Shown here: positions 58,680 through 62,250 of the stretch, one piece after another
Position numbering within the stretch: the first letter of the stretch is position 1
Layout of the letters: every line of letters begins with the position of its first letter
Origin: Alphaproteobacteria bacterium
GTDB lineage: Bacteria; Pseudomonadota; Alphaproteobacteria; UBA8366
Length of the DNA stretch: 64,000 nucleotides
Direction of reading: 5' to 3'
Assembly (NCBI GenBank): GCA_028281325.1
Contig: JANQKC010000010.1
Coordinates: 310,001 to 374,000 of the forward strand
Position numbers and translations under genes: made by a program
Notes under the pieces: generated by a model
Told to the model about the DNA's origin: nothing
Databases searched by the model: none
Seen by the model: only the letters and a program-made list of their open reading frames with translations

Positions 58680-59678
58680 TTACGGTTGGACGAACCCGAC
58701 GATTTCCTGGATTTCGCGCATGATCGGCCCCGAAATGACGCGCGCCTTGGTCCCGCCCTGCCGCAAGATACCGTCGATATAGTCCGAATCGTCGACCAAC
58801 CGTTGCATTTCCTCGCCGATCGGCCCCAGCACCGACACCGCCAGTTCCGTCAAATCGCGCTTGAACTCCGAGAATTGCCGGCCGCCGACTTCAGCCAGTG
58901 TTTCTTCTGGGCTCTTACTAATAAATGACGAATAAATGCTGACCAAATTGGCCGCCTCAGGGCGGCCTTCCAGCCCGGCCACTTCGGACGGCAGAGCGTC
59001 CGGATCAGTCTTCGCCTTGCGAATCTTAAGTGCGATGTCCTCTCGCCCGTCCGTCAAGTTGATGCGGCTGTATTCCGACGGGTCGGACTTCGACATCTTG
59101 TTACGACCGTCGCGCAGGGACATGACCCGGGTCGCCGGTCCCAGGATCATCGGTTCGACCAGCGGGAAACAGTCGACGTCGAAATCCGAATTGAATTTCT
59201 GCGCGATGTCCCGGCACAGCTCCAGATGCTGTTTCTGATCGTCGCCGACCGGCACATGCGTTCCCTTGTAGGCGAGGATGTCCGCCGCCATCAGGTTGGG
59301 ATAGGCGTAGAGCCCGACCGAGGCGTTTTCCCGGTGCTTGCCCGCCTTTTCCTTGAACTGGGTCATCCGGTTGAGCCAGCCGAGCCGCGCCACGCAGTTG
59401 AAGATCCACGCGAGGCTGGCGTGATCCGGGTTCTGGCTTTGATTGAACAGGATGTTCTTCTCGGGATCGATACCGGCGGCGATCAGCCCGGCGGTCACCT
59501 CGCGGGTGCTGGCCAGCAGCTCCGCCGGATCCTGCCACACGGTGATCGCGTGCAGGTCGACGATGCAATAGAGGCATTCGTAGTCGCCCTGCAGGTCGAC
59601 CCAGTTGCGGATCGCGCCGAGATAGTTGCCGAGATGGAGGTTGCCGGTGGGCTGAATGCCCGAAAAGATGCGGTTCAT
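58680..59678 (-). CDS. trpS: Tryptophanyl-tRNA synthetase
   Basis: A 332-residue class I synthetase. HIGH-like motif [13 protein letters not shown] (about 10-22), signature KMSKS in [15 protein letters not shown] (about 194), and the Trp-binding DLHAITVW are all present. The family length is right. ATG 59678 was chosen; upstream extension by 36 residues has no family match. It is separated by 127 bp from the upstream selenoprotein gene. Confidence 0.96.
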
Positions 59679-59805: not shown

Positions 59806-61023
59806 TCAGCCTTGGCGGTGGCGCTGCGAGCGCGGCACGAACTGGCCGGTGGCGACCTGACGCACGCGCTCGTCCGCGTGCGTGGCCAGCACCGGCTGAA
59901 GCGCCAGATAGAAGCGCCCGACCGCGGTTTCGCCCCAGAACCAGTCGGCCAGTTCGCGCGGGCGGGCCGCGCCCGGCTGGGCCGTCGCCGCTTCGAGATA
60001 CCAGCTCCGCACGTCCTCGCTGGCCAGCCGGACGGCTTCGCCCAGCGTCACGTCCGGCAGCGGATTGTCCGGCGTGCCGTCCATGAATCCGTCCAGGAAG
60101 CGCACCACGTCCTCGATGTCGCGTTTGCACAGCCCGAAGGTCGTCCGACCGCGCTCTTCCAGGGCGAAGGCGTACCAGGGCGCCAGGCGCTCGATCTCGG
60201 CGAAGACCTCTTCCAACAGCGCCGACCCGGCCTCGGCCTTGGGCGTCGGCAACGAGACGGGGCAGACCCATCCGGACATGTCGCCGGACGGGCCGCCGGG
60301 CGCGTCTTCGGGAAAATCGTCCAGCAGGACCGGGCCGTCGTCGCGTTCCAGCAGGGCGAGCGCGGTCCGCGCCACCTTGGCCTGGAATTCCGGTTCGTTG
60401 GGCGCGCCGAAGGGACGGCCCAGATCGAACGGCACCCACAGGAAGCGCGGCGGCCGCATCTGCTCGGTATTCGGCCGGACCAGACTGATCCCCGTCGTCG
60501 CGATGCCGTTCGCTTCCAGGTAATGCGCGGCCGCACCGACCGCGCGCGTGCAATTGGGTCAGACGGGGCTGAGCAAGACCGCGTTGACCTTGTCCTCCTT
60601 CAGCATGCCGGCGAGTTCGACCGCCGTCGGCTCGATCTCGTGCGGCAGCCAGCCGGCCCCCATCAGCGAATAGTGGAAGCGCGCCAGCGAGCCGATCTCG
60701 CCCGCCGCCGCCATCTCGCGCAGCCGGTCGATCGGGAAGACCACGTTGGTGTCCTGCTGAAACCCGGTCCGGTCGTAGTTGACCGAGCTGTGCGACATCA
60801 CCAGGTCCTCGGCCGCCACGTCGCCGGGGATCACCCGGTAGCCGGTGTCGCGGATGTCGAAGCTGCGGTCGCCTCGGCGGTGGAGGCCCGCGGTGGTGAC
60901 GATCGCGATCCGGCGCTCGGCGACCGGCGGCCCGGTCACCCAGGGCGATGTCTCGAAGGCGTCGCATTCCTTGCCAAGCAGATGCGCGACGTCCACCTCG
61001 GGCAGATCGCTGAGCCGCACCAT
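59806..61023 (-). CDS. GrdB-family selenoprotein, downstream copy (in-frame TGA read as selenocysteine)
   Basis: Read through TGA at 60559-60561, this is one 405-residue protein, [11 protein letters not shown] to HRQG. It belongs to the glycine/sarcosine/betaine reductase selenoprotein B family. The first part has [24 protein letters not shown] (split around these residues), then [17 protein letters not shown], where U is Sec at residue 155. The second part has [29 protein letters not shown] and [15 protein letters not shown]. In GrdB the active selenocysteine forms UxxC, and here it is U-P-N-C. It has no grdA/grdE neighbours, so the substrate is not known. If UGA were a stop, only two useless fragments would result. 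Confidence 0.8.
60532..60561 (-). promoter_or_regulatory. Sec codon and candidate bacterial SECIS, downstream copy
   Basis: TGA at 60559-60561 is followed by a 5-bp stem (bases +11 to +15 with +23 to +27, counted after the TGA) and a 7-nt loop GCGGTCG whose G-U lies at +19/+20. That distance is in the usual range for bacterial SECIS elements (apical G about 16-37 nt past UGA). Folded by eye only. Confidence 0.5.
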
Positions 61024-61026
61024 CGC

Positions 61027-62250
61027 CTAAGTGTCCCGAACCAGATGCTCGTGCGTCCGCGGCACCAGCGCCTTGTGACCGAGCAGTTGCATCATGCCGC
61101 CGTCGAGGGTCCGGCAGGTCGCGGCCAGTTGGCGCACCAGCGCGCCCGCCGCCGTATCCCGCCAGTACCAGTCGTTCAGCACGCCGCCGCCGCTGGGACC
61201 CGGTTGCGCGGTCGCGGCCTCGAAATACCAGGCCTTGATGTCGTCGGACGCGAATTTGAGCAGTTGCGGCAAGGCGATGTCCTCGCGCGGGCTGGCGACC
61301 GAGGGGTCGTCGATGAAATCGGCCAGAAGCTTGGCCGCCACGTCGATATCGAGCCCGCTCAAGCCCACGGTGGTCCGGCCGCGCTTCTCCAGCGCCACCT
61401 GGTACCAGGGGCGGAGCTGGTCGATCTCGGCGAGCACGGCGGCCAGCGCGCTGTCGGGCGCGGCATCCTCCGCCGGCGGCGTCAGGTTGACCGGACAGAC
61501 CCAGCCGGACATGTCGCCGGACGACCCGCCGGGCGCATCCTCGGGAAAATCGGCGATCACCGGCCCTTCCGGCGCAGCGAACAATGCCAGGGCCGCTTCG
61601 ACCACGCGCCGCTGAAACGCCGGTTCGTCGGGCGCGCCGATCGGCCGGCCCAGTTCGAACGGCACCCAGAGGGCGCGCGGCGGGTTCAGTTTTTCGGTGT
61701 GCTCGCGCACGAGGCTGATCTGCGTGGTGACCAGCCCTTCTTCTTCGAGATATCGGGAAAGCCCGCCGACGGCGCGCGTGCAGTTCGGTCAGACCGGCGT
61801 CAGCAGCACCGCGTTGACCTGGTCCTCCTTCAACAGGCCGGCCAACTCGCGGGCGCGCGGCTCCAGTTTCTCCGGCTCGGTCGCGCCCATGAAGGAGTAG
61901 TGGAAGGACGCCACCGATCCGATCGTCCCGTCCGCCGCCAGCTCGTTGAGGCGGTCGATCGGGAACACCACGTTGATATCCTGCTGAAAACCGCTGCGGT
62001 CGTAGTTGGTCGAGACATGGCTCATGATCAACTCCGACGACTCCAGGTCCGCCGGAATCACCCGGTAGTCCGCCGCGCCGGGGCGGAAGGTCTCGTCGCT
62101 TTTCCGCGAGAGGCCCGCCGAGGTGATGATCGCCACCCGCATCCCGCTCAACGGCGGCGCATCGGTCCAGGGGCTGTCCTCGTAGACGGGGCAGGGCAGA
62201 TCGAGCAGATGCTCGGCCTCCATTTCGGGAAGATCGGCGAGTCGAACCAT
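61027..62250 (-). CDS. GrdB-family selenoprotein, upstream copy (in-frame TGA read as selenocysteine)
   Basis: Read through TGA at 61789-61791, this is a 407-residue protein, about half identical to its downstream twin (61023). Before Sec154 it has HVSTNYDRSGFQQDINVVFP and NAVLLTPV; after it [48 protein letters not shown] and RTTVGLSGLDIDV. The TGA is conserved at the same position in both copies, and the flanking residues are almost the same while the rest has diverged, which argues for a functional selenocysteine. It is preceded by its own promoter (62318-62345) and followed by its twin after 3 bp. Redox substrate unknown. Confidence 0.82.
61761..61791 (-). promoter_or_regulatory. Sec codon and candidate bacterial SECIS, upstream copy
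   Basis: TGA at 61789-61791 is followed by a stem (bases +12 to +18 with +22 to +28, one G-G mismatch) closing on the triloop GTC, whose G-U lies at +19/+20 after the TGA. The position equals that in the downstream copy. Folded by eye only. Confidence 0.5.

What the first reader, a model, noticed from the sequence alone, without database searches (positions are those of the whole stretch)
59806..62250. Two tandem GrdB-like genes are selenoproteins, not four broken ORFs
Each gene of the pair has a single in-frame TGA, at 60559-60561 and 61789-61791, in the same context: LL(S/T)PV before it and PNCTRAVG after it. The two copies differ at nearly half their residues, yet both keep TGA and the UPNC motif, so a random nonsense mutation or frameshift is a poor explanation. 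GrdB proteins use selenocysteine in a UxxC redox site, which fits. Automatic annotation would report four truncated genes of 150 to 230 residues. Glycine reductase partners (grdA, grdE) are not present, so these may be a form of the family in an otherwise ordinary aerobic-type genome, with an unknown substrate.
Basis: partly seen in the sequence, partly recalled or inferred. Interest (0 to 1): 0.78.

Follow-up and report, generated by a model that had tools for sequence, protein, structure and literature searches.

The report
Paired PrdB-like selenoproteins in an alphaproteobacterium
Two neighbouring genes that look broken by a stop codon are in fact intact genes for selenium-containing enzymes, distant cousins of an enzyme of oxygen-shunning gut and mud bacteria, and in related bacteria the same gene often sits beside the cell's own machinery for inserting selenium.

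Summary
Confirmed: gene A (59806-61023) and gene B (61027-62250), both on the minus strand and 3 nt apart, each have one in-frame TGA that is read as selenocysteine (Sec). The genome has tRNA-Sec, selA, selB and a Sec-containing SelD. Of 98 distinct full-length relatives, 97 keep TGA at this codon and share a SECIS hairpin far beyond codon constraint. Cys forms were found only where selA is absent, and they lose the hairpin. A ~150-residue helical C-terminal domain has no Pfam family and no clear PDB match, and PrdA/GrdE and GrdA are not detected. PrdB-like UxxC selenoproteins have been known from oxic seawater metagenomes since 2005. I found no description of the long two-domain form, its pairing of two ancient paralogues (murJ-B-A-trpS), or its linkage to the Sec machinery: in 12 of 29 alphaproteobacterial genomes it lies within about 16 kb of selA, while all formate dehydrogenases detected there lack Sec. 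Best guess: a selenol reductase for electrophilic small molecules that works without a pyruvoyl subunit. Substrate unknown.

The parts
61027..62250 (-). gene B: long-form PrdB-like selenoprotein, 407 aa with Sec at residue 154
   Evidence: Pfam GRDB 39 bits, NCBIfam PrdB 114 bits; intact ortholog in same-genus G035, 92% identity
61789..61791 (-). TGA = selenocysteine codon of gene B (UPNC motif)
   Evidence: aligns with the Sec (TGA) of genuine PrdB
61761..61777 (-). SECIS hairpin of gene B (+15..+31 from TGA; loop GUC at +22..+24)
   Evidence: 6 of 7 pairs formed here; family mean 6.24 of 7 vs 4.12 in the synonymous-codon null
59806..61023 (-). gene A: long-form PrdB-like selenoprotein, 405 aa with Sec at residue 155; starts 3 nt after gene B stops
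   Evidence: Pfam GRDB 41 bits, NCBIfam PrdB 107 bits
60559..60561 (-). TGA = selenocysteine codon of gene A (UPNC motif)
60525..60547 (-). SECIS hairpin region of gene A (+15..+37; family hairpin 5 of 7 pairs, or the 9-bp minimum-energy hairpin with loop GUG)
   Evidence: the single-sequence fold is not exceptional by itself, support is from the family
61030..61488 (-). C-terminal helical domain of gene B (residues 255-407)
   Evidence: model pLDDT 92.7, no clear PDB match
59809..60264 (-). C-terminal helical domain of gene A
   Evidence: aligned with the gene B domain in A3
61495..61497 (-). Cys252 of gene B (GWVCP), invariant in 27 long forms but lost in one clade: candidate third redox residue
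   Evidence: absent in L167-L171
62347..63894 (-). murJ, conserved upstream neighbour of the pair
   Evidence: upstream neighbour in 8 loci
58680..59678 (-). trpS, conserved downstream neighbour of the pair
   Evidence: downstream neighbour in 6 loci

Best explanation
Genes B and A form an operon encoding two long-form PrdB-like selenoproteins. SHOWN by comparative sequence evidence: the TGA in each is a Sec codon, read with tRNA-Sec/SelB at a short hairpin (loop GUN at +22..+24) just after the codon; the Sec forms a UxxC pair equivalent to the Sec of D-proline reductase PrdB, and the model places it at the start of a helix in a Rossmann-like domain; a separate helical domain follows; A and B belong to two old clades kept as a tandem pair. 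INFERRED: A and B work together, perhaps as a heteromer. The selenol attacks an activated carbon (or a disulfide or peroxide) of a small molecule, the UxxC Cys (and perhaps Cys252) resolves the intermediate, and a cellular thiol reductant recharges it. Since no pyruvoyl subunit (PrdA/GrdE) is detected, the substrate must already be electrophilic, or the helical domain supplies binding. The substrate is unknown. Step by step: Sec 0.98; PrdB-like N-domain 0.95; functional A/B pairing 0.4; pyruvoyl-independent C-X bond reduction 0.45.
For: Sec machinery: tRNA-Sec 76.7 bits, anticodon tca; selB 452 bits; selA 601 bits; SelD with its own TGA in GGGUGCK plus a second, probably Ndh-fused, SelD. Codon: 97 of 98 distinct full-length copies TGA. 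SECIS: mean 6.24 of 7 pairs vs 4.12 in a synonymous-codon null (highest of 200 null means 4.34), mean energy -12.4 vs -8.2 kcal/mol, Ala codon GCC in 92 of 96; slid pairings 4.05 or less; pairs with changes on both sides present. Natural controls: Cys homologues, long (L153-L155) and short (L044, L046, L047), lose the loop GU or the stem, and their genomes lack selA. Co-occurrence: 29 of 30 TGA genomes have selA vs 27 of 355 others, p = 6e-27; in the order 21 of 22 vs 0 of 21. Homology: 32-33% to genuine PrdB, Sec column aligned. Pairing: tree, synteny murJ-B-A-trpS.
Against: The single-sequence folds of the two hairpins are not more stable than shuffles (z 0.6 and 1.1); the hairpin evidence is family-level. 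Pairing is not universal: G033 has B in pieces, and many genomes carry unpaired copies. One A-type copy (L057) has CGA/Arg at the Sec codon. Cys252 is lost in one clade. No substrate or partner is identified; neighbours of other copies are mixed. No protein data.
Confidence: 0.78

Rival explanations
1. A and B are antioxidant thiol peroxidase or thiol:disulfide exchange enzymes (UxxC as in thioredoxin-like selenoproteins), not reducers of a specific metabolite.
For: UxxC at the N-terminus of a helix; some copies neighbour GST, AhpC/TSA, glutaredoxin or CMD genes; hosts include aerobic lineages such as SAR116 and Reyranella.
Against: The N-domain matches PrdB and lies in a Rossmann-like domain rather than a clear thioredoxin fold; homology is to amino-acid reductases that attack C-N bonds. 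TauD dioxygenases are the commonest neighbours, which suggests catabolism.
Confidence: 0.25
2. The protein acts in selenium metabolism itself, for example reducing or carrying selenium for SelD, which would explain why it lies near the Ndh-SelD fusion, tRNA-Sec and selAB.
For: Within 5 kb of tRNA-Sec in 12 genomes and close to an Ndh-SelD fusion in 9 of them.
Against: Genomic linkage is equally expected if it is simply the main client of the Sec island. Multi-copy lineages, including the window's genome, are unlinked, and Cys forms persist where selA is absent.
Confidence: 0.12
3. Two pseudogenes or sequencing errors with TGA mutations at homologous positions.
For: One relative (L057) has CGA at the codon and G033 has a broken gene B, so decay does occur.
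Against: 97 of 98 full-length copies across several phyla have the TGA; SECIS conservation; complete Sec machinery; co-occurrence with selA.
Confidence: 0.01

Closest known systems
PrdB, the selenoprotein subunit of D-proline reductase (TIGR04483, ~240 aa, UGTC)
   Same: N-terminal domain homologous (32-33% identity over the alignment), Sec and Cys of UxxC in the same columns, TGA-encoded in both genuine PrdBs checked.
   Different: 107-114 bits against an equivalog cutoff of 300; UPNC instead of UGTC; ~150-residue extra C-terminal domain; PrdA not detected in the genome; hosts are mostly (alpha)proteobacteria, including aerobic lineages, not Stickland fermenters.
GrdB/GrdF/GrdH, selenoprotein B of glycine/sarcosine/betaine reductase (PF07355, TIGR01917/01918)
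   Same: Same Pfam family over the UxxC half (39-41 bits, cutoff 22).
   Different: NCBIfam scores 45-58 bits, all below cutoff; matches the C-terminal part of GrdB only; no GrdA or GrdE-type partner found.
'Proline reductase PrdB' selenoproteins of the Sargasso Sea and GOS metagenomes (PMC1088965, PMC2398784)
   Same: UxxC selenoproteins from oxic seawater filed under PrdB/pfam07355: 42 sequences in the Sargasso Sea, 235 Sec and 110 Cys in GOS. Probably includes relatives of these genes.
   Different: Those are metagenome sequences; the passages read describe no long two-domain form, tandem pair, sel-gene linkage or absence of PrdA. Identity of the sets was not tested here.
fdoGHI-selABCD clusters of Alpha/Beta/Gammaproteobacteria (PMC8124441)
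   Same: A selenoprotein gene linked to the Sec genes.
   Different: There the client is formate dehydrogenase; here the linked gene is the long PrdB-like protein and all detected FDH alpha subunits lack an in-frame TGA.

Membership tests
Bacterial selenoprotein (Sec at UGA) | In-frame UGA conserved among homologues, with Sec/Cys exchange at that column | tested here: met
   97 of 98 long forms TGA; Cys in L153-L155 and short L044/L046/L047
Bacterial selenoprotein (Sec at UGA) | SECIS hairpin with GU in the apical loop shortly after the UGA | tested here: met
   (family-level; gene B 6 of 7 pairs, gene A 5 of 7)
Bacterial selenoprotein (Sec at UGA) | selA, selB, selC and selD in the genome | tested here: met
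Bacterial selenoprotein (Sec at UGA) | Selenium detected in the full-length protein | not testable with these tools
   needs mass spectrometry or 75Se labelling
PF07355 GRDB superfamily | Pfam score above the gathering cutoff | tested here: met
   41.4 and 39.4 bits, cutoff 22
PrdB (D-proline reductase), TIGR04483 equivalog | Score at or above cutoff 300 over the ~238-aa protein | tested here: not met
   106.6 and 113.9 bits
PrdB (D-proline reductase), TIGR04483 equivalog | UxxC Sec aligned with PrdB Sec | tested here: met
PrdB (D-proline reductase), TIGR04483 equivalog | PrdA proprotein (pyruvoyl subunit) partner | tested here: not met
   PF09338 has no match in the genome (controls silent, but the model scores a genuine PrdA at 80 bits); none beside the genes
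GrdB glycine/sarcosine/betaine reductase | TIGR01917/TIGR01918 cutoff (602 / 65.45 bits) and full-length match | tested here: not met
   49.2/44.9 and 53.1/49.7 bits, partial coverage
GrdB glycine/sarcosine/betaine reductase | GrdA partner | tested here: not met
   PF04723 has no match (controls silent)
PrdB/GrdB-type reductase (works like) | Selenol attack on a C-N (or C-X) bond of a substrate | not testable with these tools
   inferred from homology only

The most novel reading that the evidence does not exclude
The long two-domain PrdB-like protein is a distinct, nearly obligate selenoenzyme class of (largely) aerobic proteobacteria that works without the pyruvoyl subunit, and in many Alphaproteobacteria it, rather than formate dehydrogenase, is the main client for which the Sec genes (selC, Ndh-selD, selB, selA) are kept and with which they travel.
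Probability: 0.45. Interest if true: 0.75.

Novelty: new variant of a known kind. Interest (0 to 1): 0.56.

Why it matters
[quoted passage not shown] A 2026 review notes that scarce FdhA in marine metagenomes implies other selenoproteins sustain the trait, and that aerobic bacteria rarely retain selenoproteins (PMC13188914). This family is a concrete candidate: widespread, almost always Sec, linked to the Sec genes, and present in cultivable hosts such as Reyranella soli. It also shows a PrdB-type selenol site apparently uncoupled from its pyruvoyl partner, which makes its chemistry directly testable. Practically, genes of this kind are split into truncated ORFs by ordinary gene calling.

Tried and rejected
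Pseudogene/sequencing error: rejected by 97 of 98 TGA conservation, the SECIS null test and selA co-occurrence. Membership in GrdB or in the PrdB equivalog: rejected on score and missing partners. Recent tandem duplication: rejected, A and B fall in separate well-supported clades. A universal partner gene: none; neighbours are mixed, TauD most common at 7 of 81. Cys252 as essential: weakened by its loss in one clade. Fold: whole model best Z 7.9, a generic Rossmann-like arrangement; C-terminal domain best Z 4.3 and no Foldseek hit below E 0.001, inconclusive as to whether the fold is new. phmmer against PDB sequences: nothing significant. A gapped TGA pattern over the own genome gave chance matches only. 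Rfam on the window: no match.

Full report
Observation. The two genes lie on the minus strand: B 61027-62250, then A 59806-61023, 3 nt apart (TAG-GCG-ATG). Each has exactly one in-frame TGA, at 61789-61791 and 60559-60561, inside LL(T/S)[11 protein letters not shown]. Ordinary ORF calling gives 154+217 and 153+227 aa fragments. A and B are 54% identical.

Sec machinery. The window is C14:310001-374000 of a 5.1 Mb, 99% complete genome. It has tRNA-Sec (76.7 bits, anticodon tca), selB and selA beside it on C24, a SelD with its own in-frame TGA (GGGUGCK) and a second SelD match, 304 bits in an 819-aa frame, interpreted as the Ndh-SelD fusion type.

Codon conservation. A search of the order and of GTDB contigs (342 relatives, 80 kept, in Alpha-, Beta-, Gammaproteobacteria, Chloroflexota, Geobacter and Desulfomonile; cultured example Reyranella soli) gave 98 distinct full-length copies. 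97 have TGA at this codon; one has CGA. The own genome has six PrdB-like genes, three long and three short, each with one TGA.

SECIS. In 96 copies a hairpin at +15..+21/+25..+31 with loop GUN at +22..+24 forms 6.24 of 7 pairs on average, against 4.12 when codons are drawn synonymously from the same genes (highest of 200 replicate means 4.34), and 4.05 or less when the pairing is slid. Every copy folds better than its own null mean. The Ala codon is GCC in 92 of 96, and pairs such as +16/+30 appear as C-G, U-A, G-C and U-G. Single-sequence folds of the two window hairpins are not exceptional. Short paralogues with TGA keep the same geometry with different letters (CAGACC-GUG-GGUCUG). Cys homologues, three short (L044, L046, L047) and three long (L153-L155), have TGC/TGT and have lost the loop GU or the stem, and the long ones also the Val that the loop encodes.

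Co-occurrence. Among 385 genomes of the class, 29 of 30 with a long TGA gene have selA, versus 27 of 355 others (Fisher p = 6e-27); the three with the Cys form have none. In the order, 21 of 22 versus 0 of 21; the exception there is a 64%-complete genome. Relatedness inflates these p-values, but the direction is clear.

Family. NCBIfam's best match is PrdB (107/114 bits, cutoff 300); the GrdB, GrdF and GrdH models give 45-58 bits; Pfam GRDB is above cutoff. tblastn finds genuine clostridial and enterococcal PrdB at 33-35% identity. Aligned, the window Sec falls on the TGA-encoded Sec of Terrisporobacter and Peptoclostridium PrdB (UGTC). The resemblance ends near residue 235. The rest is a helical domain modelled confidently by itself (pLDDT 92.7), with no Pfam family and no clear PDB match (best Z 4.3). 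The N-domain is Rossmann-like with UxxC at a helix start. PrdA/GrdE (PF09338) and GrdA (PF04723) are not found in the genome. The controls were silent for both, but PF09338 scores a genuine PrdA at 80 bits.

The pair. In a tree of 123 proteins, B-type and A-type sequences of this bacterial family form separate supported clades, so the tandem joins two old paralogues rather than being a recent duplication. The order murJ-B-A-trpS recurs in related genomes. Another tandem of two different paralogues occurs in L098 and L109. In G033 gene B is broken. I infer a functional pairing, not proven.

Linkage to the Sec genes. In 12 of the 29 class genomes the long gene lies within about 16 kb of selA; a rough binomial estimate for one random copy is 3e-18. 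In all 12, tRNA-Sec lies within 5 kb of it (10 within 2.5 kb), and in 9 an Ndh-SelD fusion lies nearby. Candidatus Puniceispirillum (SAR116) has tRNA-Sec 0.3 kb away. The window's own copies are unlinked. All formate dehydrogenase alpha matches in 37 genomes with the family lack an in-frame stop. In 1.83 of about 2.27 Mb of one compact genome (G144), a TGA read-through scan returned this gene as the only convincing selenoprotein candidate; a fifth of that genome was not read and short or unusual selenoproteins could be missed.

Mechanism. By analogy with PrdB and GrdB (established for those families), the selenol attacks a carbon next to a carbonyl and the UxxC Cys resolves the Se-C or Se-S intermediate. 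Without a pyruvoyl subunit the substrate must be activated already. This is inference; peroxidase or disulfide chemistry remains possible.

Known or new. PrdB-annotated UxxC selenoproteins were reported from the Sargasso Sea (42 genes, PMC1088965) and GOS (235 Sec, 110 Cys, PMC2398784), so Sec-PrdB relatives in oxic water are not new. In the papers searched I found no description of the two-domain form, the paired paralogues or the Sec-island linkage. The library lacks most subscription journals.

Noticed in passing
L173-L184 (12 alphaproteobacterial genomes); L114: A long PrdB-like selenoprotein gene sits close to tRNA-Sec, selB, selA and often an Ndh-SelD fusion, suggesting a Sec island whose client is this protein.
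   Followed up: partly
L019 (G000:C17:10982-11911): The window genome's SelD is itself a selenoprotein (GGGUGCK), and a second SelD match in an 819-aa frame, probably an Ndh-SelD fusion, lies on C33.
   Followed up: partly
L054, L055, L056 (G000 C20, C31, C33): Three short single-domain PrdB-like genes, each with TGA and a SECIS hairpin of different sequence but the same geometry; neighbours not identified.
   Followed up: partly
L057 (G019:C158:2124-3353): An A-type copy has CGA (Arg) at the Sec codon while the SECIS hairpin is intact: recent loss or assembly error.
   Followed up: no
L040 (G033:C7): Gene B of the tandem is in pieces in this relative while gene A is intact.
   Followed up: no
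L167-L171: One clade has lost the otherwise conserved Cys of the GWVCP motif in the C-terminal half.
   Followed up: no
L155:5164-6012 and other adjacent genes in A2: TauD/TfdA dioxygenase genes are the commonest immediate neighbours of long PrdB-like genes (7 of 81), a possible substrate hint.
   Followed up: no
L001:912-1466: A gene that looks like a carboxymuconolactone decarboxylase (AhpD-like) protein (by eye, not searched) lies beside tRNA-Sec in the window's genome.
   Followed up: no
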